Assembly: GCF_022539665.2 (NCBI RefSeq)
Contig: NC_081339.1
Location: forward strand, 868,001-932,000
DNA from: Daphnia carinata
Lineage: Eukaryota > Arthropoda > Branchiopoda > Diplostraca > Daphniidae
DNA length: 64,000 bases
Direction: 5' to 3'
Notes under the pieces: generated by a model
Databases searched by the model: none
What the model was told of the DNA's origin: nothing
Seen by the model: only the letters and a program-made list of their open reading frames with translations
In this document: piece after piece, positions 23,466-54,957 of the stretch
Numbering within the stretch: position 1 is the first letter of the stretch
Layout of the letters: each line of letters opens with the position of its first letter
Position numbers and translations under genes: made by a program

Positions 23466-23830
23466 TGTAATGAGTCAATATACCCTTTCATGTATACTTG
23501 ACGGTAGCCTATGCTATCCTTGACGTAGGTGCGACGCGTAGTGTACACACTACGTCACCACCTATCGAATAGGAGCCGCTCTGAGTATGTTTAGCGCAGC
23601 GCCTCTATGACACGGAGTTGGGTATGGCGCGTGGTATACAGCCATCGCGCCATGACCTTGTCACGCCCCCGCCGTCTAAGCGTGATGCTAATTATCACCA
23701 TGACGTGCGCTGCTGTAGCCCCTTACTGGTATATAAACCCGTGTTTCTTAATCATTAATCGGAGTTGCCTTTGCTCTGTCACTGTGTGCACTTGTACTGG
23801 GGTATAATAAACGGTTATGAGAACCTTACA
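23466..23830 (+). repeat. 5' LTR, 365 bp
   Basis: It starts TGTAATGAG and ends CCTTACA, and is identical to 36,136-36,500 except for two bases. It holds a TATATAAA box at 23,730-23,737 and AATAAA at 23,806-23,811, so the U3 promoter and R/U5 processing signals are both visible. A TAGTGTACACACTA palindrome lies near 23,548. The 66-codon open frame inside is not a gene. Confidence 0.95.
23730..23763 (+). promoter_or_regulatory. LTR core promoter of Gypsy-1
   Basis: TATATAAA at 23,730-23,737, with an expected start site near 23,760. The initiator is not a clean match (CGGAGTT). Confidence 0.55.
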
Positions 23831-23850
23831 TTTAGAGGTCCCAACGAGAC
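23831..23850 (+). other. Probable primer binding site region
   Basis: The sequence directly after the LTR (TTTAGAGGTCCCAACGAGAC) is where a tRNA 3' end should pair. It lacks the usual leading TGG, and I cannot assign a tRNA with confidence. Confidence 0.35.
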
Positions 23851-23947
23851 ATTCAGATATATAAAAGGTTCACCGTAATAAACCCTAAAAGTACATGCGT
23901 ACCACATGAAGTAAGAGCAAAATATACGAGTCCGAAGTTGACGTAGA

Positions 23948-23957
23948 CGAGGTAAGC
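23948..23957 (+). promoter_or_regulatory. Candidate 5' splice site for env mRNA
   Basis: GAG|GTAAGC, with the cut after 23,951. It lies in the leader upstream of the first in-frame gag ATG (24,110). Paired with the acceptor at 30,305 it would place env directly behind the leader. Confidence 0.45.
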
Positions 23958-24109
23958 GAATGTAAAGCACTTTTAAAAATATACAAGTAGTGGCAACTCT
24001 CGAAACCAACCCGATCTACCCAGACTTACCCGTCGTAACATTACCTCCACTATATCCTACCTTACCAACACAAAACTCTGAGACACAAACCCTCAAAGAA
24101 AATTTTGCT

Positions 24110-26692
24110 ATGAAGTGGAAAGAGCTCGTAGAGCTAGAATATAACTATCTCCTCGAGAAAAATAAAACATACCAAACAACTTCAACAACAACAAATATAA
24201 AACAATTGGAAGAAAGGAGAAAACTCTCCCACAGAGAGCTAAACAACGCTCTACAACTATACACTCACTCACTAATAAAGCAAAATCTCGAGACAAAAGA
24301 CGACACCACCTCACACGAGTCAATCAGCAAGACCACTGAAGCCATAAAAAGTCAACTAGCGAAATCTGGCGAAGAAAATAATTTCGTCGACACTCTTATC
24401 CACCAGTTAAAAACAGTCCACGGCAAAGAAAAAGAATTCCTCAGCAAAACGTTAGCTGTCCTTCAAAGTGAAACTTTACACCAGCAAGTAGAAGAGCAGC
24501 AAGCAAAAGATCAGATTACCGCAGAAAATACCAATCTACCAAAACAGATCGAGGGCAACAAGAAAAAGGCAAAGAGTTCAAAGTACACGCTCAGCAGTTC
24601 CCTAGAGGGCCTGCAAGAAAACAACGAGTCCTTAAAAAATTCACTTGAAAAAGCAAATATCCGAATTGCAGAATTGGAGAGTGACTTACAAAAATCACAA
24701 GAAGCTGAAAAATATTTCGAAGAACGGCTGAAAAAGAGAGAAGAAATTACCGAAAACGTTGAAAGAGAGGGTCAAGAGACAATTAATAAACTCGAAGCAG
24801 AAAATATCCAACTACAAGAAAAACTAAACAGTACCAGAAAACAGATAGCAGTAAACGTTGAAAGGATAAAAGAATTAGAAGCAGCTACAAAAGAAATAAA
24901 AACTCAGCTAGACAAGTCAAAAGCAGAAAAAGTCACGCTAACTAAGACACAAGCAGAAACTGTTCTTAAAAATAAAGACCTTGATCGAGCACTTCAGCAA
25001 ATAAAAAAGTAGACAGCAGAACAAGAAAATAAAATATCCCGCCTGGAGAATCGTATCGCAGAGTATAAACAACGATTCATCGAAGCCGAAGAGACCCATA
25101 CAAAACAGGAACAGCCCGGGGAAGTAACAAGATTAATTAATGAAATATACGACCTATCCTCGTTAAGTGAAGTGCAAGATAAATCACTACATTTTGAACT
25201 TGAAGCTGAGCAAATAACAGAACTGCAAAAAGTTATTGAACTATTGGGAAAACAAGTTGAATCCCAAAGTAAAAATATAACCTCCTTGGAAAAAGAAAAC
25301 TATCATCTCAAAAGGACCATGGGTAAACACCACGACGATTCCACCAGACCGGATCTAGGAAGCAGAAAATATACCGCTGAAGAAGAGGCCATGATGAGCA
25401 TCACTCAACCCATTGTAAGAGTGCTGGGAGAGCTTTTTTCGAGGGAAGACAAGAAATCCATCCCGCCATTCAAGGGTAAAAGCACCGATAAATTAATAAC
25501 CGAATGGCTCAAAGCAGCTGAGCACGTGGCCCGAAATAACAACTGGGACGACGAGCAAAAGCTACAATTCTTCTCGGACCGACTTAAAGGAGAAGCCATG
25601 GAATGGCATGAAGCTTACGTCGACGAGAAAGGAGACGAGCTGGAATATGGAGAGTGGAAAGCAGCAATAATTGAAAGATTTCAAGATGCATTTGACATAG
25701 CAGCGCTGAAGAAAAAACTAATGAAGATAAAGCAGAAACCTGAAGAAAATTGCAGAGCTTTCGTGTCGAGATTAAACAGCCTATAGACACCATAGAGGGA
25801 AAGGAAGAAAAACTCGACCACGACAAAACAATAATAGAGGATCAACTATTTAATAAAGTAAAGAAGATGAGAGATGCGACAAAGATAAAAATATTACTTC
25901 AAGGGATCTTACCTAAAGTAAAAGCGGAGCTATACCTCAGACTTCGATTCGCTTTGTAAACAACTGTTCATATCAGAACAGATATTGCACGAAAAGGAAA
26001 ATAATGAAGATAGAGAAATAACGGCAGTAATTGCTGGAATTACAGACCGTGAGAAAGAACAAGATCACGAATTGTCTAAACAAAAAACTGAACTAGAACA
26101 ACTTAGCCAGAGATTATTAGAGTTGGAATGTTTTAATAAAGATCGTGAATCATCACAGGAAAGCAGTGTGCAGATTGCAGCCACCGACCGTTACGGCAAC
26201 AGCGGACGGCAGTCGAACATACGCCAAGGTAGACCAGGTTACCCCAGAGAACAGTACTCAGGCAGAGTCCGTTTCCGAGATACCTTAGACCGCAGCAGAG
26301 CGTCAAGTTATTCACGCAGTAGAGAACCGAGTTTTTCAAAAAGCAGAGAAGCGAGCCCGTTTAGGAGAAACGAACCTACACAACGTTGGGGGCATAACGC
26401 ACCAATAAGGGATCGTGAACCAACATATACAACAGGCTTCCGAAACCAACGAAACCACCCCTATACACATCAACCGGGAAGATACCAACAACCTTTCAGG
26501 ACTAACAACCACGCAGATATCAGGTACCCGCAGCAAAACGATAGCAATCGCCAATATCGCAGTACAGGAGTCCGTACCCCAGTAAACAGAGATATAATTT
26601 GTCATAAGTGTAACAAAAAGGGACACATAGCAAGAGAATGTTGGACCAATATGGCACTTATGAATTATGCGAATCACCAACAAATAGAATAG
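24110..26692 (+). pseudogene. gag: Gypsy-1 gag: coiled-coil region, capsid-like domain, RS-like region and CCHC knuckle
   Basis: The open frame begins at 23,990 without an ATG; the first in-frame ATG is 24,110. Residues to about 400 are Glu/Lys/Gln-rich heptad sequence that should form long coiled coils. The retrotransposon gag domain follows (PPFKGKSTDKLITEWLK...AMEWHEAY...FVSRLNSL, about 25,450-25,790). After it come an Arg/Ser-rich stretch (RSRASSYSRSREPSFSKSRE) and a CCHC zinc knuckle (CHKCNKKGHIAREC) near 26,600. Breaks: TAG at 25,010-25,012, and two compensating frameshifts near 25,785 and 25,940. Function: structural polyprotein packaging the element RNA. The long coiled coil ahead of the capsid domain is unusual. 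Confidence 0.85.
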
Positions 26693-27642
26693 ATAAGGCA
26701 CTAACCCGCAGTAGCATAAAATCGGATAAATTAGATTCTAACATACCCCAACTAATACGCATACCCATTAGAATTTATGGAATAGTAATTAGAGCTTTGA
26801 TAGACACTGGAGCAGCAGCCAGTCTAGTTTCCGCAGATACCTTACTCAGCATAAATGAAAAAGAACTAAAACAAATAAAAAATAAAAATATGCCCACATT
26901 TAGGACCGTATCCGGTCAGACACTAAAATCAATAGGGCAATATGAACTAACAATTACCATAAATAATAACCATTATCACTACTTCTATGCCATAGAAAAA
27001 CTGAACGAAGATTGCATTTTAGGCTTAGATTTTCTATCTAACAATAACGTGAAAATTAATACTAGAAATAGAGAAATATGCTATGACCATTTAGGCGTAG
27101 AACATAGCTATAGGCAGAATATACCGTTATATAACCTAACCTTCGAGAATGCGGGAATTAACATACCAATAATACCAGTACTTACTAACAATCAAGAGGA
27201 AAAACTAACAGCAAAAGATCGCCGTAACTTAGAACCTTTCAGCCAGTGTGATATCTCGAAACAAGACAAGACGAAAGCGCTAGATAGCCAACCACCACAA
27301 TTCAATATCCCAGAATTTGAAACTGAAGTCTTAACAAAAGTAAAAAACTTACTTAACAAACATGAGCAATTATTTGCGGACAAGGAATCAGACCTTGGGC
27401 TCGTATCACGAGTAAAACATTTTATAAATACCGGACATGACATCCCGATTAATCAACGACTCCGTAGAACACCCGAAGCACTGAAAGAAACCGTAAAATC
27501 TAAAATTGAAGTAATGCTAAAAAATAAGATAATAAGGGAGAGCCACAGCCCGTTTGCCGCAGCCATCGTAATGGTACCCAAAAAGGATGGAGAGATGCGT
27601 ATGTGCATCGACTATAGGCCGCTAAATAAAATAACAAATTAA
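26638..27642 (+). pseudogene. pol: Gypsy-1 pol, first part: protease and start of reverse transcriptase
   Basis: An ATG at 26,638 overlaps the gag end by 55 nt in the -1 frame, so translation by frameshift or by reinitiation is possible; no classic slippery heptamer is evident. The aspartic protease motif ALIDTGAAASLVS has its DTG at residues 56-58. The linker ends with SRVKHFINTGHDIPINQRLRR, the entry to the reverse transcriptase, and block 1 ([20 protein letters not shown]). A TAA at 27,640-27,642 interrupts the frame just after DYRPLNKIT. The older copy at 45.2 kb has a lysine codon there, so the stop is a private mutation. Confidence 0.9.
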
Positions 27643-28566
27643 GATAAATACCCTTTACCAAGAATTGACGATACTGTGGATGCATTGTGCGGGTCTATGT
27701 ATTTTTCATCATTGGATCTTTTGAGCGGATACTGGCAAATCGAGATTGAAGAAAAGGATAAATATAAGACAGCTTTCATTTGCGAATTTGGACAGTACGA
27801 ATTTAACAGAATGCCATTTGGGTTAACAAACGCACCAAGTACGTTCCAAAGAGCAATGAATAACATTCTGAAAGACGTGCTGTACAAATTCGCCCTAGTA
27901 TACTTAGACGATATAATTATATTTAGTAAATCGATTAAGGAACATCTATCGCACCTAGATAAAGTTTCCGAGCTTTTGGAAATTGCGGGACTTAAGCTAA
28001 AAAGAAAGAAGTGTGAATTTTTTAAAGAAGAATTGGACTATCTCGGATACATCGTTTCTAGAAAAGGGATAACACCAAATTTGAAAAAATTAAAAGCAAT
28101 TATAGATTACCCCGCTCCCAAAAATACAAAAGAATTGAGTTCATTCTTAGGTTTGGCTAGTTACTACAGGAAATTTATCAGAGCTTTTGCTGATAAAGCT
28201 CATCCATTGACTGCACTTACGAAAAAGTCAGCAGAATGGAAATGGGGAGAGTCAGAAGGGGACGCCTTTAATTGTATAAAGAACTGTCTCATCACTAGAC
28301 CTATCCTGAGTTATCCGGATTTTTCGCGCGACTTTATCATCTATACGGATGCGTCAGGGTATGGAATAGGAGCAGTCTTGGCACAAATACAATCTCTACC
28401 TCAATCAGCGGATTCAGGTGAGACTAACGAACCAGTTCTCAGTGAATCAGACGACACAGAAGTCGTCATTGCATACAGCTCCAAACATCTGAATGACCGC
28501 GAAGCCAAGTGGTCCACCACAGAGAAGGAAGCTTATGCGATCGTTCATGCAATCAACGTATTTTGA
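27643..28566 (+). pseudogene. pol: Gypsy-1 pol, middle part: reverse transcriptase core and RNase H
   Basis: Same frame as the preceding segment. Reverse transcriptase blocks are LDLLSGYWQIEI, FNRMPFGLTNAPSTFQ and the catalytic ALVYLDDIIIFS, then the thumb GLKLKRKKCEFF and LGYIVSRKGI. RNase H follows with IYTDASGYGIGAVLAQ and SSKHLNDREAKWSTTEKEAYA. These copy the RNA genome into DNA and degrade the RNA strand. A TGA at 28,564-28,566 breaks the RNase H; Gypsy-2 has an Arg codon at that site. Confidence 0.92.
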
Positions 28567-28911
28567 ACCTACCTATACGGACGTAAATTTACAGTATACA
28601 CCGACCACCGACCGTTAGAATGGTTAATGAGTAAAGCGGAACCAGCAGGACGACTAGCTAGATGGGCACTCAAAATCCAAGAATATGACATCGTAATTGG
28701 ATATCGACCAGGTAAATCGCACCAAAATGCGGATACCCTTAGTCGTACCCCAGTAGCAACTATAGCTAGTGTAGACGCAAGAGCGATTAAAAGCGAAATT
28801 AAAGAGGAAGAAAGCGAATGGGTTCGACTACAGCATAACGATATAAATTGCAGAAGAATTATAGGTAATTTAATGAAAAAAAAGAAACAGGGAACCAGAA
28901 AGGAAGACTAG
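28567..28911 (+). pseudogene. pol: Gypsy-1 pol, RNase H C-terminus and tether
   Basis: The frame continues after the TGA with YTDHRPLEWLMSKAEPAGR and GKSHQNADTLSR, the last RNase H blocks. It ends at TAG (28,909) in an 11-bp tandem repeat. The next part of pol is in a different frame. Confidence 0.85.
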
Positions 28912-28947
28912 TGGACGACTAGTGGAAGACTAGTGGAAGACTAGTGG
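28905..28947 (+). repeat. 11-bp tandem repeat, four units, inside pol
   Basis: GGAAGACTAGT, GGACGACTAGT, GGAAGACTAGT, GGAAGACTAGT. Gypsy-2 has only one equivalent (GGAAAACTAGT at 49,650), so three units look recently gained. Confidence 0.85.
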
Positions 28948-30242
28948 TACCAGGAAATACAATAAGAGAAATAATGGAAGAAAATCATGATCACATGTTA
29001 GCAGGACATTTAGGAATAGCGAAGACTTTAGCGAGACTACAAAGACAATATTTTTGGCCAAACATGAGAACAGATGTTACGACATACGTTAACAGTTGCT
29101 TAAGATGTGCAAGGCGTAAAGCCTTCGGCGCAACGATAGCACCATTGCAACCTCTGCCACCAGTTGACAGAGTATGGCAACGCATTGCAATGGATATAGT
29201 AGGACCAATTCAAGAAAGTGTTAAGGGATATAAATATGTTCTAGTTCTGTCTGATTATGCCAGTCGTTTCGTTTTTGCATTTCCAATGAAAAACCAGACC
29301 GCCCAAACAATCGCATCCATTATGGTAAATAAAGTGATAACGAAATATGGAGCACCCGAGATTGTGCTAACCGACCAAGGAATGAATTTCCTTTCGAGTC
29401 TTGTTCAAGAAATGTGTAAACTCTTTAAAATCAAGCAGATAAGAACTACCGCCTACCATCCGCAAACCGACGGACTAGTAGAAAGATTCAACAGAACACT
29501 GTGTGATATGCTAGCTTGCTACGTAGTAGATGAACCGGAAGAGTGGGACAAATACCTACCATTTGTCACCTTTGCGTACAACACATCACAACAAGCTACG
29601 CTAAAGGACACCCCATTTTACCTTTTCTTCGGAAGAGAACCAATTCTACCTAACGACATAAAAATAAATCGGAACTTCGAGCACGACGAAGGCAGTAGTG
29701 GATTATACTACCAAAAATGGAGAAACGCTCAAGACCTGGCAAGAAGTCACCTCTTCAAAGCACAAACTAATCAGAAAGGATACTACGATGAAAGAGCAAA
29801 AGGAATTGCGTATAAAATTGGTGACTTAGTAATGCTAAAAGCTCCACCATCAGCAGGTAAATTCATTAACAGGTGGAACGGACCGTTCCGAATCACACGA
29901 AACTTCTCAGACATAACTTACGAGGTCGAAAACATTGAAAACAAAAAACAAAAAGCAACCGTTCACTCTAATCGCCTGAAACTCTATATCCCTCGAGAAA
30001 GTGTACCAAACACCACAGAAGCACTAAATCCAAACGTGAAAATCGAAAGTAAAAACAAACGAGGTCCTGGAAGACCACGTAAAAATATAACAACAGAGAT
30101 TAGCCCCGTAAATTTGAAAAAAGAAATGAACCCCACGAATCCTTTATCCCGGATCACAAACCAAAGAATGTCCTATGCCGAACCAAACACCCCAACCAAT
30201 TCGAGAAATGCCCGCTATAATCTTAGGAAAAGAACTAATTAA
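28944..30242 (+). CDS. pol: Gypsy-1 pol, integrase with GPF module and AT-hook-like tail
   Basis: A 432-codon open segment of pol. It contains the HHCC zinc-binding region (HDHMLAGHLG...CLRCARRK), the catalytic core with DIVGP (Asp), VLTDQGMNF (Asp) and HPQTDGLVERFNRTL (Glu), and the C-terminal RWNGPFRITR module typical of Ty3/Gypsy integrases without a chromodomain. Near the end KRGPGRPRKN resembles an AT-hook, which could help bind AT-rich DNA. Gypsy-2 has a partly matching LGPGRTRKH. The segment itself has no internal stop. It ends TAA at 30,240. Confidence 0.92.
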   Translation: MVPGNTIREIMEENHDHMLAGHLGIAKTLARLQRQYFWPNMRTDVTTYVNSCLRCARRKAFGATIAPLQPLPPVDRVWQRIAMDIVGPIQESVKGYKYVLVLSDYASRFVFAFPMKNQTAQTIASIMVNKVITKYGAPEIVLTDQGMNFLSSLVQEMCKLFKIKQIRTTAYHPQTDGLVERFNRTLCDMLACYVVDEPEEWDKYLPFVTFAYNTSQQATLKDTPFYLFFGREPILPNDIKINRNFEHDEGSSGLYYQKWRNAQDLARSHLFKAQTNQKGYYDERAKGIAYKIGDLVMLKAPPSAGKFINRWNGPFRITRNFSDITYEVENIENKKQKATVHSNRLKLYIPRESVPNTTEALNPNVKIESKNKRGPGRPRKNITTEISPVNLKKEMNPTNPLSRITNQRMSYAEPNTPTNSRNARYNLRKRTN

Positions 30243-30250
30243 GCAAAACT

Positions 30251-30271
30251 AAAAAAAAAAAAAGAAAAAAA
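30251..30271 (+). repeat. A-rich tract between pol and env
   Basis: Thirteen A, G, seven A, then CCTTTAATAATAAAAAG. It separates the pol stop from the env splice acceptor. Confidence 0.8.
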
Positions 30272-30292
30272 CCTTTAATAATAAAAAGTACT

Positions 30293-30305
30293 TTTTATAT
30301 AACAG
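30293..30305 (+). promoter_or_regulatory. Candidate 3' splice site immediately before the env ATG
   Basis: TTTTTATATAACAG precedes ATG at 30,306. Gypsy-2 has TTCCAAATTTCTTTCTCACAG directly before its env ATG (51,043). The AG-ATG junction is kept although the flanks have diverged. Confidence 0.6.
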
Positions 30306-32891
30306 ATGGAGATATCCCTACTAGTAATTTGCGTGTTAGCTACCCTTGAAACTTCCAAAACACTTTACGTGTCCGTATGCGATTGTAAGAATGTGAAAAC
30401 AAGAGGCATACTGGATATAAATTCACCCTATTATTGCGATAAAGAAAATGTCGAAACCAGGCTACATTTCCCACGTTTCCCCACTAGTTATACTCTAATG
30501 ACAAAACAAAAACCCATTAAAACATGGAAAGGATGGACTTGTAAACAATGGATAAAAACAAAAAAAATTACGGGATCCTTTTGGGTTGGATCATTCGACA
30601 CGGTTTTCTCCCAAGAAACAAAACTGATTTCACCGTTAGAATGTTGGGAAATGGTTAACGATAAGAGATGCGGAGGCAATATTATGCAGGCCACCCCAAC
30701 CTCATTAAGTTTCACAGCAACCCCAACGGGAGAGGATGCGTGGTATGCCATTAAAGAATATCGCGTCCTAAATTGCCTTGCAGAAGAGATAACATTAAGA
30801 CAGGAAACCCCTGAAAGCCCAATTGAAAGCCCTTTTGGATATTTAAATGCTACCCAACAAGACGGCCAAATCATTCAAAATCATAATACAATAGTATGGG
30901 GAGATAAATCTAGTAATTTTTCCAATTCCCAAATAATCCTTAAAGGTATTGGATATCTAGAATTGACCCAAACCACAGAAATCGTAAATACCAGTAGACT
31001 CTTAGATACCAGTAGACAAATTGAAATATCATTCTTTAACACCCCTGATAATAATAATAAAGAACTAGCTCAACCCAGCTTTAAAGTAGTCGGCATCCCC
31101 CTAACCTTTTTGATATTCCTCGCCGAAACAACAAGAAAGTTATACAAAATACATAAAAACACCCTACCCTCCTGTAAAAATCAAACCAATATCGACTCAT
31201 GGTCATGCAATGAGTTTGCTGAACCGAGGAATAGCAAAACGAAAAGATCCATAAAGCAAGAAGTCGAAGTCCTTTTAAACGATCCACTCGAAGAAACAGA
31301 ATTGGGAAAACGACTCTACAGCATTTCTTATGCTTGGGGATGGATTCGTTTAGGCCATCCAAAAATAACAAAGATAGAAGAAAACGGCGTAATACGCAAA
31401 CAAGATTCAATCGTTTACATCAAGATAATGTACACCCAAAAACAAGTGACCATCCATAACCAATTCGACATAGACGAAAAATTACCTTACGGAACAGACT
31501 TCGAGTACCTAATGGAACACACCTTACGAATCAGAAGAACCACCACGTGTATAACGACATCGGAGGTAAACACCATCATTACGGGACAGTGCGGTGAACG
31601 GACGTCGCGCTGGCTATTCGATACAAAAAACCACCAGCTAATATCAATGGAAAAACACCTATGCATCACACTACGAGACGAGGACGAAGGAACCAAACGC
31701 TCTTTAATCATGCAAAAATGCAGCAGACCTGACGATATGGACGACAACCAGCAATGGGTATTTGAAACACTAAATTCAAACCCAGAAGTATTAGAGAACT
31801 TCCCAGAAACATCCATCGACGAGCTGGAAGAAATAAGACTAGAACAGAGAAGAGCAATAACGACAACCATTAATTCGCCGATTTTTGGAAACTTAATTAA
31901 ATTCAACCACGGACATGGAAACATCATATGGGATATGATCAGCTGGGGACTACTTAAAAGCGGAAGACCACCAAATGAAAAATGTGTAACATACAACGGA
32001 ACTAACACAATGATGACGCTGGAAGAATGCGACCGAGACTGGATCAAATGCCAAAGAAGCCTACACAAATTGCTAACAAGCAATGACCCACTAGTACAAA
32101 CTCAAACGACAGTCGCAAACTGCAGTAGGACATTGGAACGAGGTCAAGCGTTCGAATATTCAGCGGATTTCCCAATCAGACCTTTCAATACCAACAACTG
32201 TATCAAGGCTAATACAACGATGTTAGTCTTACAGGACTGTTCAAGTACTAGCTCAGTATGGGGAACATTCGAACACACGGGACAATTTATGGCAACGGAT
32301 AGAACGGGATCACACTCACCTGCCTCAGACAGAAAATGTCTGACACTGAAAATAGAAAAGTTAAGCCTAGGACATTGCCACGAAAGGAGCAAGAAACAAC
32401 ACTTCAGCTTCGAGTATAAAAATCCTCACCAAATAAAAACCTTGCCAGCATCAGCTATCATAGCTTTATATACGCAACAATCGTTCGACGGGAAAACTGT
32501 ACCACGAATCCCACCGTTAAACAAACATGAAAATATCAAATCAGTTTTTAGAAGTGAAACGGAAGAACCCCCTACAACAACAGCAAAATCAGTTGGCACA
32601 TCAACCGCCAAACCGACTACGACGACAACGCATCGTCCTATTACAACGAAAACTACAACGACACTTAAACATACAACGACTAGTAAACCAGTGCCTACAA
32701 CGACGACAAAACCATCCACAACGACAAGGCTAACAACAACGACATCAAGATCCACATCCACCACGACAAAACCAACTGCAAAGACAACCTTACCGACGGC
32801 AAAACCTACATCGCCTTCAATAACCACACGAATGGTTACCGCAGCGACATTCAGCATCACTATAGCAAAAATACTACTCCACGACCAGTAG
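30306..32891 (+). CDS. env: Gypsy-1 env-like glycoprotein, N-terminal and mucin-like part
   Basis: 861 codons. A hydrophobic signal peptide (about residues 1-18) is followed by a Cys-rich ectodomain whose spacing is shared with Gypsy-2 (FDCKN/CDCKN...GILDI...PYYC). A KTKR-type basic site near residue 314 could be a furin cleavage site. Around residues 410-490 is a ricin-B-like pattern (RWLFD...CITL...QQWVFE). The last 100 residues are Thr/Lys/Pro repeats typical of mucin-like, heavily O-glycosylated stalks. The frame breaks at 32,891, and the remainder lies in another frame from about 32,860. Envelope role is inferred from position, signal peptide and downstream membrane anchor. The arrangement resembles virus glycoproteins captured by arthropod LTR elements, but the origin is not established here. 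Confidence 0.7.
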   Translation: MEISLLVICVLATLETSKTLYVSVCDCKNVKTRGILDINSPYYCDKENVETRLHFPRFPTSYTLMTKQKPIKTWKGWTCKQWIKTKKITGSFWVGSFDTVFSQETKLISPLECWEMVNDKRCGGNIMQATPTSLSFTATPTGEDAWYAIKEYRVLNCLAEEITLRQETPESPIESPFGYLNATQQDGQIIQNHNTIVWGDKSSNFSNSQIILKGIGYLELTQTTEIVNTSRLLDTSRQIEISFFNTPDNNNKELAQPSFKVVGIPLTFLIFLAETTRKLYKIHKNTLPSCKNQTNIDSWSCNEFAEPRNSKTKRSIKQEVEVLLNDPLEETELGKRLYSISYAWGWIRLGHPKITKIEENGVIRKQDSIVYIKIMYTQKQVTIHNQFDIDEKLPYGTDFEYLMEHTLRIRRTTTCITTSEVNTIITGQCGERTSRWLFDTKNHQLISMEKHLCITLRDEDEGTKRSLIMQKCSRPDDMDDNQQWVFETLNSNPEVLENFPETSIDELEEIRLEQRRAITTTINSPIFGNLIKFNHGHGNIIWDMISWGLLKSGRPPNEKCVTYNGTNTMMTLEECDRDWIKCQRSLHKLLTSNDPLVQTQTTVANCSRTLERGQAFEYSADFPIRPFNTNNCIKANTTMLVLQDCSSTSSVWGTFEHTGQFMATDRTGSHSPASDRKCLTLKIEKLSLGHCHERSKKQHFSFEYKNPHQIKTLPASAIIALYTQQSFDGKTVPRIPPLNKHENIKSVFRSETEEPPTTTAKSVGTSTAKPTTTTTHRPITTKTTTTLKHTTTSKPVPTTTTKPSTTTRLTTTTSRSTSTTTKPTAKTTLPTAKPTSPSITTRMVTAATFSITIAKILLHDQ

Positions 32892-34048
32892 AGGAAATCC
32901 CAGAAACAATTCCCACCTCAACGATCCCCACCCCCAAAATCACAAATACACCGACTACAGAAAACACAAAACACAGCCCCAACACCACCGAATTGGAATA
33001 CCCGACACCAAGTGAAAGCGACACGACGACAACCCAAAAGCCAAGAAGCGGAATAACAAAAAGAGAAAAGGAAATGACAAACGATTCATCATCACCACGC
33101 CCTAAGGAAGATACCAAAACGGAATTATTGGTGTCCACGAAGGACCTAAACGATCGGCTGAAGTACGAAATAAGTAAAATGCACGAGCAATATAAAATAA
33201 ACATAGAGACGGAACACGAAAATAAATTGGCCAAAGAAATTAGAGACGTATACTGCCAATTAACAAAGATAAAAAGAACACAAGCAATTATATTGGCCCA
33301 AACGAATGGCCTGCTAGCAGCAGCTGCCATAGGCCTACCTACATGTTCAAGACTTTATGGTTTTGGGCAAGCCATGACGCTACAACAATGTGAGCAAAAA
33401 CGAATTTTACTATCGGCAAAAGAAACGAAATGCGGATTCCAACCCTTCTTTAAGTATGGAAAAATGAATTGCACAATTGGAACAGATGGGTGGTCTATTC
33501 ACCCATATTCTGATTTTTTCTGGAAAACGCAACTAGTGAACATCAATGGATACCCGCATTCATGGGAACATAAAGACACCAACGGTGATTGGGTAAAACA
33601 AGACGCAACAATCCACACACCAAATCTTGATCTAATCGCAGAATTTGACGAACTTCATCTAAACAATTTCGATTATACACTTAAAAGTCACCCAGCCCAT
33701 AACGCAATGGAGATGGAACAATTAAACATACTGAACGATTTAGTCGGAAAACTGCAAGAAGGAGAAGCACGATCACTATCGGACATTGTAGTATCGGAAG
33801 CGCAAGAAAATAAAATTGGAAACATGTTCTCTTGGTTCGACACGTTAAAAATCCTAGGCCTAACATCAATTGGGTTTATACTATTCATAATATGCCTGCG
33901 AGTATTTATCGCATGCAACCCATGCCCAAGATTACTAAAGAAAATCAATTCAAGAAAAGTAACCGCGAAAAATGACAAAACAGCTAAACGCACCATCATC
34001 ACCATCCGCACCAGAAAAAGAAAATATTTACTCAGCCGAGGAATCTAG
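32860..34048 (+). pseudogene. env: Gypsy-1 env-like glycoprotein, membrane-proximal part and anchor
   Basis: A continuation of the mucin stalk in a shifted frame (the track of open codons extends upstream of the first ATG at 32,993). It contains a helical region (LKYEISKMHEQYKI...NKLAKEIRDVYCQL) that is also in Gypsy-2, a small Ala-rich segment (LAAAAIGLPTC) that might be a fusion-peptide-like element, and Cys-containing ectodomain. A transmembrane helix (ILGLTSIGFILFIICLRVFI, about 33,848-33,907) and a short basic cytoplasmic tail follow. One frameshift separates it from the upstream env segment, so this copy cannot make a full product. Gypsy-2 has lost everything after RDVYCQL. Confidence 0.75.
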
Positions 34049-34169
34049 TTGGGAAAGAGGCAGACAAAAAACCTGCACAGGTAATCATACGACATGCTCA
34101 TATGTCGTTGGGCATGGTATGGTGTGGGAAGACTTGTGCAAATGCGCAGGGAGCTTGGACACAGGGATT

Positions 34170-34192
34170 AAAAAAAAAAAAAAAAAAAAAAA
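34170..34192 (+). repeat. Run of 23 A residues after env
   Basis: An uninterrupted A23 tract 120 bp after the env stop, followed by TTG and a second A9 run. It resembles a captured poly(A) tail. Confidence 0.85.
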
Positions 34193-34430
34193 TTGAAAAA
34201 AAAATAATAATAAGTGAAAAACACAAGGCATTAAAAGAAAGTAGTATATTACATACATCAAAGTAAAAATACAAACACAGCAAGTCAAACAGTAATAGAC
34301 AAAAACAATAAATAAAGCTTATAGTAGGATAGTTCTGCTCTAATAGACACCTAATATGATACCCCATTTAAAAGATAACCCAAATAAAAGGCCGAGCTAA
34401 TGATGAAAAGCCGACAAACCAAATGGGTAC

Positions 34431-34467
34431 TATAAAAGATGATGTACACTAACACTAACTTCAGTTT
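34431..34467 (+). promoter_or_regulatory. Internal TATA-Inr promoter of the ankyrin gene
   Basis: TATAAAAG at 34,431-34,438 and an arthropod-type initiator TCAGTTT at 34,461-34,467. The initiator A (34,463) is 32 nt from the first T of the TATA box, which is the functional spacing. The start codon follows 91 nt later. Confidence 0.65.
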
Positions 34468-34553
34468 GGAAACAAATCTTAACAAGAGTCAAGAGACACT
34501 TCGAACAACTCCTGACTTTCTTCAATTCCTAACCTACTATCCCTAAAACCAAG

Positions 34554-35396
34554 ATGTCGTCTACAATCAACAACGAACGGGATCCAATCAAACAGGAACG
34601 CCCGTGCTGGGTTGAAGATCTAGTAAACGACTGGATAGGAACCGATGAAACTCAACAAGCCATAAAAATCGAGAAAGGACCGACGTCTGACATAGGGCCT
34701 GAATTGTGCACTGAAGTAGAAATCGCGAAACACGAAATAGAAGAAAGTGGTGACGATGACCCAAATTGGCTAAGAAAAATGATTGAGCAGATCAAGAAGG
34801 ACGAAGATATCGCGGACAGCGACGCAACGACAGTAGAACTGCCAGACATGCACCACAATCGGGACGAGAAACAGTCAAATTGCAATCACAGTAAAGGTGA
34901 ACCGCCCCAAGAAAACACAAGTGAAGGTGAAGAATCCATTAGTAGCGAATACGACGATGGGCACTACACCACGTCAATGGAAGACAGTAGCAGCGACAAC
35001 GACGACGTGTATCATACGACCGGAAGCTTTGAAAGTACTTCAAACGCTGGGCCGTACGAATATGACGACGAAGAAAGTGTGTTTCACAGTGACGACGATC
35101 GGAGTAAGATGGGACACAGAGGTGATTACTACGACACACCCGCAAGCAACGAAGAAGGAGGACTAAACCACGCCCAAAAAGAGCACATCACTCGCAGTTG
35201 CCGTAACTGCATGCTAAAGACCTTCCCTCCTTTAGTGGCCGGCGATGCAGCCAATCAACGCATCGAGAGGCTAGCCACCATAGCAGCCGAACGAGGACAG
35301 TTCGTCTTCGAAATAATCAACGCCCCTCGAGAAGCGTGGGAAGCTTGTTGGATACGAAATTCCCAAACGGAAGAACCATGCTCCACGAAAGTGTAA
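34554..35396 (+). CDS. Gypsy-1 ORF4, acidic N-terminal part of the ankyrin protein
   Basis: It starts at ATG in a good context (AAGATGT). 280 codons, with a strongly acidic Asp/Glu/Ser-rich region to about residue 215 (EGEESISSEYDD, SMEDSSSDNDDVYHTTGS, EYDDEESVFHSDDD), then a short Cys-containing segment (RSCRNCMLKTFPPL) and a helix (RIERLATIAAERGQFVFEII). No signal peptide or membrane segment, so a cytoplasmic or nuclear location is expected. The ankyrin repeats continue in the +2 frame from about 35,330, so a single frameshift probably splits one gene. I do not recognise the N-terminal domain. Retroelements of this group do not normally encode a protein here. Confidence 0.75.
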   Translation: MSSTINNERDPIKQERPCWVEDLVNDWIGTDETQQAIKIEKGPTSDIGPELCTEVEIAKHEIEESGDDDPNWLRKMIEQIKKDEDIADSDATTVELPDMHHNRDEKQSNCNHSKGEPPQENTSEGEESISSEYDDGHYTTSMEDSSSDNDDVYHTTGSFESTSNAGPYEYDDEESVFHSDDDRSKMGHRGDYYDTPASNEEGGLNHAQKEHITRSCRNCMLKTFPPLVAGDAANQRIERLATIAAERGQFVFEIINAPREAWEACWIRNSQTEEPCSTKV

Positions 35397-35917
35397 ATAA
35401 GAAAAAATACGACGTCACGGAACTATTATTGACTTTCGGCGCAAACATCGACATCACAGAAAAGGGTGAAACAATAGCTCACCGAGCCGCCGCAGACAAC
35501 AACGAACACTTACTCAGAACCCTGTCATTCCACAGGTGTCAGTTTAGCGAATGGAACTGTCTAGGGGAAACTCCCCTAATGGTGGCCATCGCATTAAAAA
35601 ACGAAGAAAGCATCGGTTTTCTGTGGATAACTCCACTGATAAAACAGTTAAGTCGCGATGGAGAAACGATCCTACACTATGCAGCGAGATTCAACAGCAA
35701 GAAAGAATATGTCAACAGTGCATGCATGCACGGTGTAAACGTCAACCGAAAATCTCTGACGCGCCGTGAAACGGCCCTTATTGCAGCCGTACGATATGGG
35801 AACCCCGAGATAGTTGAAGTGCTGTTAAGGAACGGCGCAAGATATGACGAACCAAACTATCTTGGAAATTATGCCACGGATTACATAATCAATCGAATCG
35901 CCGCACCCACCAAGTAG
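35336..35917 (+). CDS. Gypsy-1 ORF4, ankyrin-repeat domain
   Basis: About 193 codons without an ATG at the start (the frame opens upstream of a GTG at 35,336). Five ankyrin units are visible: GRTMLHESV...LLLTFGANID, GETIAHRAAADNNEHLLRTL, GETPLMVAIALKNEES, GETILHYAARFNSKKE and ETALIAAVRYGNPEIVEVLL. A matching five-repeat domain is at 54,066-54,623 in Gypsy-2. Ankyrin domains bind other proteins. The overall layout (acidic Ser-rich N-terminus then ankyrins, no enzyme domain) superficially recalls IkB/vankyrin-type proteins, but no specific homology is claimed. It ends TAG at 35,915-35,917, with AATAAA 21 nt further on. Confidence 0.85.
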   Translation: MGSLLDTKFPNGRTMLHESVNKKKYDVTELLLTFGANIDITEKGETIAHRAAADNNEHLLRTLSFHRCQFSEWNCLGETPLMVAIALKNEESIGFLWITPLIKQLSRDGETILHYAARFNSKKEYVNSACMHGVNVNRKSLTRRETALIAAVRYGNPEIVEVLLRNGARYDEPNYLGNYATDYIINRIAAPTK

Positions 35918-35937
35918 AACTCAGAGTACAATATTAA

Positions 35938-35943
35938 AATAAA
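35938..35943 (+). terminator. AATAAA behind the ankyrin gene
   Basis: A polyadenylation hexamer 21 nt after the ORF4 stop. A functional signal here would make a separate short mRNA with the promoter at 34,431. Confidence 0.4.
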
Positions 35944-36095
35944 TACATGCTAGATATCTTGGAACGTTCGGGACCCTAGACTTAGCCTCAAGAAAAAATG
36001 TAACCCAAGAAAGCTTATTCGTATAAACAATGTTGAAGTGTGTAGTTCCTATTTGTACACGCCTAGGGCATAAGTAATATCTAGTGTGTAGTATG

Positions 36096-36113
36096 GAGTT
36101 GGAGGACCAACTC
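36096..36113 (+). other. Hairpin conserved upstream of the polypurine tract
   Basis: GAGTTGG-AGGA-CCAACTC. Gypsy-2 has AATTGG-AGGA-CCAATT at 54,918-54,933: same loop, with a G-C pair replaced by A-T. Confidence 0.55.
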
Positions 36114-36123
36114 TTATCGACAA

Positions 36124-36135
36124 AGGGGGGAGGAA
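36124..36135 (+). other. Polypurine tract of Gypsy-1
   Basis: AGGGGGGAGGAA directly precedes the right LTR, as needed for plus-strand priming. Confidence 0.85.
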
Positions 36136-36500
36136 TGTAATGAGTCAATATACACTTTCATGTATACTTGACGGTAGCCTATGCTATCCTTGACGTAGGT
36201 GCGACGCGTAGTGTACACACTACGTCACCACCTATCGAATAGGAGCCGCTCTGAGTATGTTTAGCGCAGCGCCTCCATGACACGGAGTTGGGTATGGCGC
36301 GTGGTATACAGCCATCGCGCCATGACCTTGTCACGCCCCCGCCGTCTAAGCGTGATGCTAATTATCACCATGACGTGCGCTGCTGTAGCCCCTTACTGGT
36401 ATATAAACCCGTGTTTCTTAATCATTAATCGGAGTTGCCTTTGCTCTGTCACTGTGTGCACTTGTACTGGGGTATAATAAACGGTTATGAGAACCTTACA
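36136..36500 (+). repeat. 3' LTR, 365 bp
   Basis: TGTAATG...CCTTACA, two substitutions from the left LTR (TATACCC/TATACAC and CTCTATG/CTCCATG). Followed by CATG. Confidence 0.95.
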
Positions 36501-36785
36501 CATGCAATGATTAAACAATTAATGGTTACTACAGGAAACATCGCCACTTTCATTTCCTTAGCTATTGCCTTTCACGATACGTATGTTGTTTGTGTCCTTA
36601 TTTACACGAAACTGGAAGGATAAAAAATAAAATTTAGATAACTTCTGTTAATAAAAAAAAAATGCCTGATTCAAATTACCTGTAACAGTTCTGATCTGTG
36701 TTCCACCACTATCTGGGATTCCAGACGTTGTCCGGCAATTAAGTTTTCTTCATAAATATGATTTAATTCTTTTACTAGAGATGTT

Positions 36786-37664: not shown

Positions 37665-39011
37665 TTATTGACGTCCGGGGCAATATTCGAGGTGTTCTCT
37701 GCAACAACTGCGTCGGGTTCGTCTGATAAAACTTTCAATGGGAATAGATTTTGGATAGGGCGAATCGTTTGACCTGATACTAATCTCCACTACACGAACT
37801 ACTCCGTCTGATCCGGGAAATAATCGTGTAACTATTCCATAAGGCCATAATTGTCGCTTGATATTGGATTCATGTACTAAGACAATTTCACCAACCCGAA
37901 TGGGGCGTGTGGGGCGATTTGCAGTGCGAAAATCAGATAAGTCGTGCAAATAGTCTCGCCGCCAACAGTTCCACAAATGGGTAAGAACTCGATTCCGTTT
38001 AGTTTCTAGTGGGGGTTGGGGTAAGTTTTGTTATCGTGGAGTGATTTGTTCTGGAATGGAGTTTGTAGCCGTAAATAAGATGGCTCAGGGTGAGGTTCCT
38101 CTTGACAAGTGCAGTTTCTACTTGCATAAATGATCTTCCGATGGTTTTCCGTAACACTTGCTTAAGTGTACGAATCATTCTTTCCACCATACACCCCACC
38201 AAGAAGCTAGAATTGGCAGAAAATTTTCAGGGGATATTGTTATTGGTGAGGAAATTGTATACCTCTTGGGATCCTCTTTGATTCCTTGGAAATAGGAGGC
38301 AGATGTTTTGAATGTTTTTGCTTTGTCCGAGTAAATTGTTGTTGGCATGCCTCTGCGACCAATGAACTTTCTTAGTGCACAGGTGAACGTGATGGTCGTC
38401 ATGTCGGGAATTAATTCGACATGGATCGCTCTGGTTGTTGTACAAGCTATGAATAGGGCGTATGAATTTATAATATCTTCAGACTGGGATTCACGGGTGT
38501 GGAGTGGGCCTGTGAAGTCTAATCCAACAAATTCAAAAGGTCATGCTTGTTGGACACGACATGTTGATAATGCTGCTGCTACAGCGCCGAACGATAGTGA
38601 TTGCGTTTTCTTGCAGTTGTTACAGGTTGATAAAATCCTTTTCACTTTTTCTCTACCATGAATAAACCAGTAGGTTACGCGGATTTCTGCATGTGTAGCT
38701 GAAATACCTTGATGGCCAACCTTGATGTGAGGTTCTATTATGATTAAGTCAGTAACATGATGATTTTTTGGCAACATGATCGGAGCTCTTGCGTTGGACT
38801 CAAGAAAGTGGTGTTCAATTCGTCCTGTAACTCGGATTACTTTCCGGCGATGATCCCAGATTGGTCGCAGTGGTGTCCAGTTGTGGGACCGTGGCAGTGG
38901 TTTCCCTTTTGAGAGGAGTTTATACTCCGTCTGAAACTTATGTCTCTGGATGAGTTGGATGATTTGTAGTTGGCTCAATGCTGTTTCGGCTACTACAAGG
39001 GATGGTACCAT
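37665..39011 (-). pseudogene. pol: BEL pol: integrase and DUF5641-like C-terminal domain
   Basis: From 39,011 leftwards: zinc-binding region of the integrase (LPKNHHVTDLIIIEPHIKVG, HAEIRVTYWFIHGREKVKRI, CNNCKK), the catalytic core in fragments (TTITFTCALRKFIGRRGMP, YSDKAKTF, WWGVWWKERMIRTLKQVLRK), and at 37,665-37,976 the domain that follows the integrase in BEL/Pao elements (RVGEIVLVHESNIKRQLWPY, GIVTRLFPGSDGVVRVVEI). Several frameshifts separate the pieces. It would insert the DNA copy into the host genome. Confidence 0.85.
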
Positions 39012-39211
39012 TACGGTATTTTTTTGTATATGGTATTGGAATAGTGGATGAATTAGGAATGTCGGTTCTCAATTTTCCAAACAGGTTCATCCAAGCTCGG
39101 ATTTTATGAGTTTGACGAGCGTGCTGAAACGAGAAAATAGGAAGGGTTCTGGTTGTCCCAAAATTTATTGATGCAACGATGGTTTTCTTTCCCTCCAGAC
39201 TCAATTCTTCC

Positions 39212-40023
39212 TTAAAGGTGCTCACATCTAATTGGGATGTAGGATGATGTGGTCAATGATTTTCTTCTGTTTGTAGCCACGATGGTCCACGTAGCCAAAA
39301 ATTCTTGTTCAGGACATCTATTGTTGCTCATCTGGATGCTAGATTTGCAGGGTTGTCCTGTCCGGGACAATGTGCCCAATTTGAATTCTTGGTGAGTTGA
39401 TTGATGGTTATGATTCGATTTCTGACAAATGGTTTCCAGCGTTGTGGATCGCTTTTTATCCATGCTAATGTGATTCGAGAATCGGACCAAAATTGAAAAA
39501 TAGTAGTGATAATATGGAAAATTTTCTTGACGTAGTCTGACAGTTCATCTCCTAGTAAGGCGGCCATAAGTTTTTTTCGGGCTTGGCTCATTTCTTTTCC
39601 ACTAGGTGCTACTCTAGTTTTACAGCAAAGTTGCGATACTGATACTTTTTTGGTTGTTGATTTTTCTCTAATGTAGACGACGGCTCCGTAAGCTTCTACT
39701 GAAGCATCGCAAAACACGTGGATATTAATTACTTCAGGTGATGTGAATAGGATTTTTCTTGAGATCCTAACATGTTTAAGTTCGTTGAGACTGTCCAATG
39801 CCTTCTTCCACTGATAGTATACTTCATTTGGAATCGGTTGATCCCATTCGATATTAGCTTCCCAGATCCGTTTGTATAATATTTTTGCAATGAGGTGAAC
39901 GGACCGAGGGCTCCCATAGGATCGAATAGTTGTGACGAAATACTGATGAATTGGCGTTTGGTGACAGTTCCGGTTAATCCTGTTATTTGGGTTTGAAGCT
40001 TGTATAAGGTTCGAATAATGTCT
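39212..40023 (-). pseudogene. pol: BEL pol: connection and RNase H region
   Basis: Reading leftwards: TVTKRQFIS, MGALGPFTSLQKYY (the FDPLG-like block that follows the BEL reverse transcriptase), then RNase H-like VINIHVFCDASVEAYGAVVY and FWSDSRITLAWI, NRIITINQLTKNSNWAHCPG with DNPANLASR. Frameshifts at about 39,750-39,800 and 39,330. The upstream side ends at the 9-bp duplication bordering the inserted element. Confidence 0.85.
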
Positions 40024-40130
40024 GTTCCTTACTTTTAATTATTAGATTGGGAATAGTGATGATGCGTTGTATTGTTGCACGGATGGTCGAGTATTCTACA
40101 ATGACCAAATTATTAGTTGCCGAAAGGATA

Positions 40131-41108: not shown

Positions 41109-41137
41109 TCACTTACTGAGACAGAGATGGCAACTGA

Positions 41138-41312
41138 AAGTAGACTGATTGAAAGTTAAAAGTGGACTGACTGAGAGCTTAAAAACACACTGCTTGGGGC
41201 GTGAATTGAAACTGGAATTAGACTGAAACACACTCGCTGGAAGATAACAGTAGACTGCCTGGTGGCTAGAAGTAGACTGCCTGGTGGCTAAAAGTAGACT
41301 GATTGACAATCT
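41138..41312. repeat. Degenerate 22-bp tandem repeat
   Basis: Units centre on AGTAGACTG; the best two are AGTAGACTGCCTGGTGGCTA in direct succession (41,250-41,293). About seven or eight decayed units. Confidence 0.7.
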
Positions 41313-41534
41313 GGAAAAAGGACAACATTTATACGATGGAGCAAGGTCGTTTAGGATTAGGTGTCCCAACGGGAATAAATATTCTGCGTGTAAATGTAAC
41401 ACCTTTGTGAAGAATTGACAAGTTTGAAGGCCAGAGCTATCGGTAGAGATTTGTTGGTGGGAGAGTGGGGGGAAAAGGGTTCTATGCGTGGGAATGAGAG
41501 GGGAAGATAAGGAGTACGGCTGGCCGTTCCTTAC

Positions 41535-54056: not shown

Positions 54057-54065
54057 TGACAGAAA

Positions 54066-54623
54066 ATGGCCACATTCCTCAATAAAAGATTCGAAGAGGA
54101 AAAGACGCTACTCCACACAAGCGTACGAAGATATCGATACGACATTACCGATCTTTTACTATCCTTCGGAGCGGACCCAGAGATACTGTATCACGGAAAA
54201 ACAATCGGCCATATCGCAGCTGCCGTAAATGATCTACTATTACTACGAATCCTGAAGCATAGCAACTGTGAATTTACAGCTCGCAACTACAACGGAGAAA
54301 CTCCCTTAATGTTGGCAATCTCACGCGAAAACCAAGAATGTGCGAAGTTAATATGGACACCAACTAACACCAACATTGTAACACCTGAGGGCAGAACCGT
54401 TTTGCATTATCTAGCCATGTATGGTCTCGAAGACCTGGCTACTCAAATTTGTGCAAAAAGAATCATCAACATCACCCAACAAGATGATTCAGGCGAAACC
54501 GCCTTACACGTAGCAGTCGGATTCAATCGAATCGACATGATTGAAATATTACTTTTACATGGAGCAGACGCATGGATAAAAAAACTCCCATGGACACACG
54601 GCGGGATCAAAACCATGCAGTAA
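54066..54623 (+). pseudogene. Gypsy-2 ankyrin-repeat domain (remnant of ORF4)
   Basis: 185 codons with five ankyrin units aligned one-to-one with Gypsy-1: KTLLHTSVRRYRYDITDLLL, GKTIGHIAAAVNDLLLLRIL, GETPLMLAISRENQECAKLI, GRTVLHYLAMYGLEDLATQI and GETALHVAVGFNRIDMIEIL. The acidic N-terminal half, its promoter and the env anchor have been removed by one deletion ending near 54,057. The repeats themselves have stayed open, although the rest of the element is full of stops. Protein identity to the Gypsy-1 domain looks moderate, so the two have diverged for a long time. Confidence 0.85.
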
Positions 54624-54957
54624 AAGAGCGCAAGCCATCTTTGAAAAATGGAAACAAAAACATAACGGTAACCCCCAGACTAAAACTAGAAGAAAAGAAC
54701 ACCAACAATACAGCCGCGAGGAAAATGAACAAGCCATAATCAACATAGCCGAAATACCGGGCAGAAAGAAAAGCAATAATCAAAGAAGAAAAGAAAGAAG
54801 ACAATACACCAACAACCTTATTCAAATCACATCAACTCTTTTTCTTAAATTTTAGGTGAAGGAACAAGTTTTATTATTCAACCATAGCAACAACTGTAGT
54901 CGGTGACGGAAAATGCAAATTGGAGGACCAATTCTTCTTACCGAAGAGGGGAAGGAA

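What the first reader, a model, noticed from the sequence alone, without database searches (positions are those of the whole stretch)
34554..35917. A Ty3/Gypsy element carrying a fourth gene with five ankyrin repeats
Seen: behind env and before the polypurine tract, an acidic Ser/Asp-rich region is followed by five clear ankyrin units, split by one frameshift near 35,330. Known: Ty3/Gypsy elements encode gag and pol, sometimes env; accessory genes at this position are uncommon, and an ankyrin gene is not something I know as a standard component. Inference: the element acquired a host- or virus-derived regulator. An IkB-like decoy acting on immune signalling is one hypothesis, resting only on general layout.
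Basis: partly seen in the sequence, partly recalled or inferred. Interest (0 to 1): 0.88.

Follow-up and report, generated by a model that had tools for sequence, protein, structure and literature searches.

The report
Ankyrin gene in Daphnia retroviral elements
A family of virus-like jumping elements in water-flea genomes carries an extra, selectively maintained ankyrin-repeat gene next to its envelope gene, and nearly identical elements carry swapped versions of it, which suggests the gene deals with something in the host.

Summary
The window lies in a Daphnia carinata assembly. A 13,035-bp Ty3/Gypsy element (23466-36500; 365-bp LTRs, 2 differences; CATG duplication) carries ORF4 between env and the 3' LTR: an acidic arm, a pre-ankyrin segment and five ankyrin repeats. 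The window copy is broken; 28 of 108 matches in one search and 4 of 150 in another keep a full-length open frame. ORF4 lies within 5 kb downstream of 85 of 113 related env matches and of 0 of 23 distant env matches. Ten Daphnia magna protein models show the env-ORF4 order. dN/dS is 0.15-0.37 in 14 pairs with dS 0.42-1.19, so it is a constrained element gene, not host flank. Splice-like signals suggest its own mRNA. In five pairs its dN is 4.7-7.7 times that of the env C-terminal part; it varies most on the predicted ligand-binding face in 7 of 8 pairs; two versions sit in backbones about 98.5% identical. My reading: a host-interaction accessory protein whose ankyrin module is exchanged between elements. 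The target is unknown and the IkB-decoy idea has no specific support. Planarian Burro elements carry ankyrin repeats inside Gag-Pol; ten answered paper searches listed no separate post-env ankyrin gene.

The parts
23466..23830 (+). 5' LTR, 365 bp; 4-bp duplication CATG outside both LTRs
23831..23850 (+). primer-binding-site region; TTGGAGGTCCCAACGAGA-type block in other copies; primer tRNA not identified
23950..23962 (+). predicted major 5' splice site AG|GTAAGCGAATG at the predicted gag start; block identical in 8 of 8 aligned leaders
23966..26692 (+). gag region, three frames in this copy (Ty3_capsid, zinc knuckle); a stop follows the predicted start
26614..30242 (+). pol: protease, reverse transcriptase, RNase H, integrase; interrupted by stops in this copy
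   Evidence: several other copies have 1219-1293 aa frames
30303..34048 (+). env: ricin-type lectin domain, then a C-terminal part with a hydrophobic segment (my reading); one frame of up to 1386 aa in other copies, two overlapping frames here
34449..34464 (+). predicted ORF4 3' splice site (branch-like CTAAC, then TTCAG), 89 nt upstream of the ORF4 ATG with no ATG between
34554..35333 (+). ORF4 first part: acidic arm and pre-ankyrin segment (residues 1-260 of the intact relative L002)
35330..35917 (+). ORF4 second part: five ankyrin repeats; basic C-terminal tail lost in this copy
36122..36135 (+). polypurine tract
36136..36500 (+). 3' LTR
54060..54843 (+). ORF4 part of a second, degraded element of another family of the same clade (two frames, N-terminal half not matched)

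Best explanation
ORF4 is a fourth gene of a Daphnia clade of env-bearing Ty3/Gypsy elements. It most likely is read from its own spliced mRNA (leader 5' splice site just before gag, joined to a 3' splice site 72-89 nt before the ORF4 ATG). It makes an accessory protein: an acidic arm, a short segment special to these proteins, and a five-repeat ankyrin scaffold. The scaffold binds a host protein through its concave face and so helps the element multiply or escape silencing. Because the bound target varies or fights back, this gene changes faster than env, and ankyrin modules are swapped between co-resident elements by recombination, probably during reverse transcription. Shown by computation: element membership, conservation, purifying selection, recombination. 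Predicted from sequence: splicing. Inferred: host binding and a defence-related role; target unknown.
For: ORF4 within 5 kb downstream of env in 14/17 close and 71/96 intermediate env matches. Ten of the 70 database proteins that I compared (of 223 retrieved), all named D. magna, join env and ORF4 in that order. LTR pairs with duplications flank ORF4 copies in the window and in L028 (0/201 differences), L026 (1/204) and L038 (3/206). dN/dS 0.15-0.37 in 14 pairs with dS 0.42-1.19. Splice-like sites. env C-terminal part dN/dS 0.04-0.06 in 6 of 7 pairs. L021 and L022 differ from L033 and L028 by 15.4% across ORF4 +145 to +1278 and by 1.3-1.6% elsewhere; L025 is a further recombinant. Concave-face positions differ more than convex ones in 7 of 8 pairs, Fisher p<0.01 in 4.
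Against: No expression, splicing or binding data. No pN/pS or dN/dS above 1, so positive selection is not shown; a merely relaxed concave face would also vary. The L002-L009 pair runs the other way (3/38 concave, 10/50 convex, p=0.14). Pairs share sequences, the position classes are recalled, and there was no host-ankyrin control. Recombination is known in LTR elements and need not reflect selection on ORF4; gag and pol were not tested for the same exchange. No known domain besides ankyrin reaches its Pfam cut-off, so nothing points to a target. 61 of 154 ORF4 rows have no env match within 6 kb upstream.
Confidence: 0.55

Rival explanations
1. ORF4 is a nuclear regulator of the element's own RNA (export of unspliced RNA or transcription), functionally like CERV of Cer1 or Rev/Tax of complex retroviruses; the ankyrin repeats recruit host export or transcription factors.
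For: Position and predicted spliced message fit; an element with two predicted spliced mRNAs must export unspliced RNA. Several versions have a basic tail (e.g. L002, L026, P0002). CERV is a novel protein from a spliced Cer1 mRNA needed for genomic RNA export (PMC10309623, abstract and passages).
Against: Simple nuclear-signal patterns occur in 9 of 13 representatives, but shuffled sequences match in 13-74% of trials, so this is not significant. L025/L021 lack the basic tail. The distant env lineage has no ORF4 match (0/23).
Confidence: 0.25
2. ORF4 is an IkB-like decoy that holds Rel/NF-kB factors, as polydnavirus vankyrins do.
For: An ankyrin stack; virus ankyrins with this activity exist in arthropods (PMC3359993 and PMC3757122, listing with abstract openings; passages of PMC3757122).
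Against: Best sequence matches are general ankyrins; no IkB or NF-kB named in the top 60 of 496. [quoted passage not shown] carinata ORF4 representatives have 206-292 residues before the repeats. The concave face is the less conserved face across 16 sequences.
Confidence: 0.08
3. ORF4 serves the particle or env (assembly, cell-to-cell spread, or superinfection exclusion) rather than acting on a host defence.
For: Found after the lectin-type env in 19 of 20 fetched loci; ORF4 and env distances correlate (Mantel r 0.61, p 0.0044, 11 loci).
Against: A distant env lineage has no ORF4 match; near-identical env go with two ORF4 versions.
Confidence: 0.1
4. ORF4 is captured or flanking host sequence without function in the element.
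For: The window copy is broken in two places; many genomic copies are broken.
Against: Low dN/dS, open frames, deep ORF4 clades, presence in two species, position inside LTRs.
Confidence: 0.02

Closest known systems
Burro / GYPSM1 giant Ty3/Gypsy elements of planarians (PMC6431247, passages)
   Same: Ty3/Gypsy element carrying ankyrin repeats among presumed host-interaction domains; env homology noted by the authors
   Different: There the repeats lie inside one huge ORF1 polyprotein; here they form a separate gene after env with its own predicted splice site. I did not compare the sequences.
Additional ORF3 genes of bdelloid rotifer LTR retrotransposons (PMC5408684, abstract and section list)
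   Same: Extra genes besides gag and pol, shared between element types
   Different: Those are env-like, GDSL esterase and DEDDy exonuclease genes; the search listing counts no 'ankyrin repeat' in that paper
CERV of Cer1 in C. elegans (PMC10309623, abstract and passages)
   Same: Accessory protein of a Gypsy/Ty3-type element from a spliced mRNA
   Different: CERV shares peptides with Gag; no ankyrin repeats in what I read; a role in RNA export is shown there
Polydnavirus vankyrins (PMC3757122, passages)
   Same: Ankyrin proteins of a virus-derived system in arthropods, multigene family
   Different: The two used there are 171 aa and lack the regulatory ends of IkB; intact ORF4 is about 410-511 aa with an acidic N-terminal arm and no demonstrated IkB relation
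LTR elements of Daphnia pulex (PMC2996953, passages)
   Same: Gypsy elements, up to 12,862 bp in its table, in a Daphnia genome
   Different: The words ankyrin and lectin do not occur in its main text

Membership tests
Ty3/Gypsy LTR element with env | Two LTRs and a target-site duplication | tested here: met
   365-bp LTRs, 2 differences, CATG
Ty3/Gypsy LTR element with env | PR-RT-RNaseH-IN order and gag with capsid and zinc knuckle | tested here: met
   Pfam matches in that order
Ty3/Gypsy LTR element with env | env gene between pol and 3' LTR | tested here: met
   single frame of up to 1386 aa in other copies, lectin domain; fusion activity not testable
Ty3/Gypsy LTR element with env | RT phylogeny within a named Ty3/Gypsy lineage | not tested
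   no RT tree was built
Ankyrin-repeat protein | tandem 33-residue ankyrin repeats above Pfam cut-off | tested here: met
IkB / vankyrin | closest similarity to IkB among ankyrin proteins | tested here: inconclusive
   no IkB in the top 60 of 496 solved-structure matches; that ranking favours long repeat arrays
IkB / vankyrin | short ankyrin protein without N- and C-terminal extensions (vankyrin) | tested here: not met
   410-511 aa with 206-292 residues before the repeats in D. carinata representatives
IkB / vankyrin | binds Rel/NF-kB | not testable with these tools
   needs a binding assay
CERV/Rev-type RNA regulator | made from a spliced element mRNA | tested here: inconclusive
   conserved 5' site in 8/8 leaders; 3' pattern in 13/18 ORF4 copies but also in 6-34% of shuffles; no RNA data
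CERV/Rev-type RNA regulator | nuclear localisation | tested here: inconclusive
   motifs in 9/13, not more frequent than in shuffles
CERV/Rev-type RNA regulator | needed for export of unspliced RNA | not testable with these tools
   needs experiment
Burro-type ankyrin elements | ankyrin repeats within a Gag-Pol polyprotein | tested here: not met
   ORF4 is separate, after env

The most novel reading that the evidence does not exclude
ORF4 is a swappable recognition cassette of an endogenous retrovirus-like element. Elements in one water-flea genome exchange alternative ankyrin genes on backbones that are about 98.5% alike, and the differences concentrate on the ligand-binding face, as expected if the module tracks a varying host antagonist (for example a silencing or antiviral factor) or a rival element.
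Probability: 0.35. Interest if true: 0.8.

Novelty: new variant of a known kind. Interest (0 to 1): 0.62.

Why it matters
Invertebrate LTR elements with env bear on how retroviruses arise, and accessory genes in them are little known (from general knowledge). A fourth gene kept in two Daphnia species, with allele exchange that coincides almost exactly with that gene in the copies compared, gives a tractable case of possible host-element conflict in an ecological model animal. It also warns that automated annotation calls such copies host ankyrin genes (e.g. 'serine/threonine-protein phosphatase 6 regulatory ankyrin repeat subunit C-like').

Tried and rejected
Host-flank explanation: rejected by LTRs, linkage and selection. 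Recent capture from a Daphnia host gene: the two non-element matches I fetched (L053, L054) look like ordinary host ankyrin genes at 29-31% identity; other weak rows were not read. Viral origin: no relative in the IMG/VR collection with L002 ORF4, the env protein P0194 or P0012. A SUMO-interacting motif in the N-terminal arm looked attractive by eye, but my pattern was met in only 6 of 13 representatives, which are related to each other (shuffles 3-12%), so I do not claim it. Nuclear signals: 9 of 13, not above shuffles. Rfam: nothing at the gathering threshold in 23400-36600. Protein searches: apart from Daphnia and environmental sequences (a third clade P0010, P0011, P0012, P0014, P0017, P0021 at about 40% identity), the listed hits are general multi-ankyrin proteins; only 8000 candidates were scored and 120 of 428 hits listed in the second search.

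Dropped rows and misses: the linkage count used 136 of 148 env rows and 96 of 97 integrase rows, leaving out second pieces of the same copies, and 150 ORF4 rows plus 4. 61 of these 154 ORF4 rows have no env match within 6 kb upstream. 28 of 113 close or intermediate env matches had no ORF4 match within 5 kb; I inspected 5. Of 9 fetched 5' ends, 3 gave an LTR pair with a matching duplication; L044, L045, L047, L048, L049 and L052 did not. L040 of 20 fetched ORF4 loci had no env match and L023 only a short one. Of 7 pairs with both env and ORF4 rates, 2 (L021-L025, L026-L025) were left out of the 4.7-7.7 figure because their env and ORF4 have different histories.

Full report
WHERE IT IS. The window is contig C9:868001-932000 of a 108-Mb genome. 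Two NCBI proteins lie on contigs whose lengths equal contigs C7 and C4 of this genome and are named Daphnia carina[name cut off] and Daphnia carinata (with contig lengths); one of them, P0001, is encoded letter for letter in locus L006. I take the host to be Daphnia carinata.

THE ELEMENT. LTRs of 365 bp at 23466-23830 and 36136-36500 differ at 2 positions and are flanked by CATG, giving an element of 13,035 bp. Pfam finds a Ty3-type capsid, zinc knuckle, protease, reverse transcriptase with RNase H, and integrase in order. env has a ricin-type lectin domain; several other copies have one env frame of up to 1386 aa (e.g. 1297, 1306, 1372), while the window copy has two overlapping frames. gag, pol, env and ORF4 are all interrupted in the window copy; open frames of pol, env and ORF4 exist elsewhere in the genome.

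ORF4. It begins at 34554 and has an acidic Ser/Thr-rich arm, a pre-ankyrin segment with a CxNCxxKT-like motif in the two Daphnia clades, and five ankyrin repeats. Intact relatives of the same family (L002, L005, L008) are 511 aa from the ATG and end in a basic tail. The window copy aligns to L002 at 97-98% in two blocks, residues 1-260 and 278-466: one short internal deletion with a frame change before repeat 1, and loss of the tail.

COPIES IN THE GENOME. A search with the ankyrin part of the window returned 150 matches (150 of 192 candidates scored). A search with the L025 version returned 108 (101 of 508 candidates scored), of which 28 cover residue 13 or earlier to residue 405 or later of the 412-residue query without a stop (my count). 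In the close family 4 of the 150 rows have a 518-codon frame without stops. The counts are lower bounds, and some copies give more than one row.

POSITION. In a coordinate count ORF4 lay within 5 kb downstream on the same strand of 14 of 17 close env matches (86% identity or more), 71 of 96 intermediate ones (58-79%), and 0 of 23 distant ones (36-43%). For integrase matches (within 9 kb) the figures were 15 of 20, 33 of 57 and 0 of 19. Seen from ORF4, 93 of 154 rows had an env match within 6 kb upstream. Among 20 fetched loci of the intermediate class, 19 showed env before ORF4, one of them (L023) with only a short env match; L040 showed none. Three loci of the distant lineage have the env tail and then no ankyrin signal in about 3.5 kb. 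Of 28 env matches without ORF4 in the first two classes I inspected 5: three run into a 100-N assembly gap, one loses element homology in the env tail and one at about the ORF4 start. So among those inspected no complete element without ORF4 was seen; 23 were not inspected. LTR pairs with matching duplications flank ORF4 copies in L028 (0 of 201 differences, CACG), L026 (1 of 204, AATG) and L038 (3 of 206, GTAT), besides the window; the other 6 of 9 fetched 5' ends gave none. The L028 insertion, with open env and ORF4 frames, looks recent.

SECOND SPECIES. Of 70 database proteins that I compared (of 223 retrieved), ten contain both the env C-terminal part and ORF4, in that order (one-residue overlap in P0018); all ten are named Daphnia magna. 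A tree of 23 ORF4 sequences shows three groups: one joins L002-type D. carinata with D. magna P0002 and P0190 (support 91/88; P0190 is a long branch), one joins L025-type D. carinata with D. magna P0003 and P0006 (94/94; the program warns that two long branches meet here and the join may be false), and one holds only environmental sequences (100/100). ORF4 is therefore probably older than the split of the two species, or it has moved between them. env relatives also occur in D. sinensis and D. pulex; ORF4 of those species was not among the listed hits, which does not show absence.

SELECTION. Of 22 pairs (Nei-Gojobori), 14 with dS 0.42-1.19 have dN/dS 0.15-0.37; 6 with low dS have 0.24-0.52; 2 are saturated. 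The env C-terminal part has dN/dS 0.04-0.06 in 6 of 7 pairs; the seventh has almost no changes. In the five pairs with comparable dS in both genes, dN of ORF4 is 4.7-7.7 times that of env. ORF4 is constrained but changes faster than this part of env.

EXCHANGE OF ORF4 VERSIONS. Over about 5.4 kb, from env to the 3' LTR, L021 against L033 and L022 against L028 differ by 1.3% and 1.6% outside one segment, and by 15.4% inside it. The segment runs from +145 to +1278 of ORF4, i.e. from codon 49 to just past the stop. L025 carries the L028 version up to about +1025 and then a segment that differs from L028, L030 and L033 by 13.6-14.4% up to +1278, where it is 97-98% like L021. Such sharp borders mean recombination. 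L038 against L021 or L025 also shows low dS in the N-terminal arm and high dS in the repeats. Recombination among distantly related Athila LTR elements has been reported (PMC2410132, abstract opening in the listing), so the process itself is known. The part of the element upstream of these stretches was not compared.

WHICH RESIDUES VARY. Using ankyrin position classes that I recall from designed ankyrin proteins (concave face 1, 2, 3, 5, 10, 13, 14, 33), concave positions had more amino-acid differences than convex ones in 7 of 8 pairs, with Fisher p below 0.01 in 4; L002-L009 runs the other way (3/38 against 10/50, p 0.14). Across 16 sequences the mean pairwise identity is 0.32 concave, 0.43 convex and 0.68 core (p 0.025 concave against convex). 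The pairs share sequences and no class reached pN/pS above 1. This fits a face without one fixed ligand; it does not prove positive selection. I had no host-ankyrin control.

HOW IT MAY BE EXPRESSED. The block AGGTAAGCGAATG, a strong 5' splice site at the predicted gag start, is identical in 8 of 8 aligned leaders from two deep families. env is preceded directly by an AG splice-like site in the 2 copies examined. ORF4 has a branch-like and CAG site 72-89 nt before its ATG, with no ATG between, in 13 of 18 copies; five (L023, L024, L026, L032, L039) lack my strict pattern, though L023, L024 and L026 keep a pyrimidine-CAG stretch in the alignment. Shuffled upstream sequences give the pattern in 6-34% of trials, so a single hit is weak. 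Insect endogenous retroviruses make env by splicing (PMC12992720, passages). No RNA data were available to me.

FUNCTION. No Pfam family other than ankyrin reaches its cut-off in 8 ORF4 proteins. The best matches in solved structures are general ankyrins, with no IkB among the 60 shown of 496. I commit to an accessory protein that binds a host factor, most likely one that limits the element (0.55); an RNA regulator like CERV is the main rival (0.25).

WHAT IS KNOWN. Planarian Burro elements have ankyrin repeats inside a polyprotein with Gag and Pol (PMC6431247, passages), and bdelloid LTR elements carry other additional genes (PMC5408684, abstract). Ten answered paper searches listed no title or abstract opening that describes an ankyrin gene after env in a Ty3/Gypsy element; the library lacks most subscription papers. 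The D. pulex LTR survey does not use the word ankyrin in its main text (PMC2996953). I therefore call it a new variant of a known kind.

Noticed in passing
window 30303-34048; L025, L028, L031, L033: env is a very large single frame in several copies (up to 1386 aa) with a ricin-type lectin domain; relatives in D. magna, D. sinensis, D. pulex and environmental contigs. No paper held all of ricin, lectin domain, envelope, retrotransposon and gypsy.
   Followed up: partly
L030 oriented 5404-6453 and 7075-7695: Two further ORF4-like frames lie downstream of ORF4 on the same strand; they may be remnants of other elements lying side by side or extra ankyrin genes.
   Followed up: no
proteins P0010, P0017, P0021 (and P0012): The environmental ORF4 clade has an additional similar C-terminal region without a Pfam match where scanned (P0010, P0012, P0017).
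   Followed up: partly
L044/L002 and L046/L028 flanks: A satellite with a period of about 70 bp lies next to the LTRs of these copies.
   Followed up: no
window 37665-42145, minus strand: Frames that look like another retroelement (my reading: BEL/Pao-like pol fragments) next to the element.
   Followed up: no
L004: One copy has a Thr-rich stretch like that of env in one frame with ORF4 (525 codons), presumably through a deletion.
   Followed up: no
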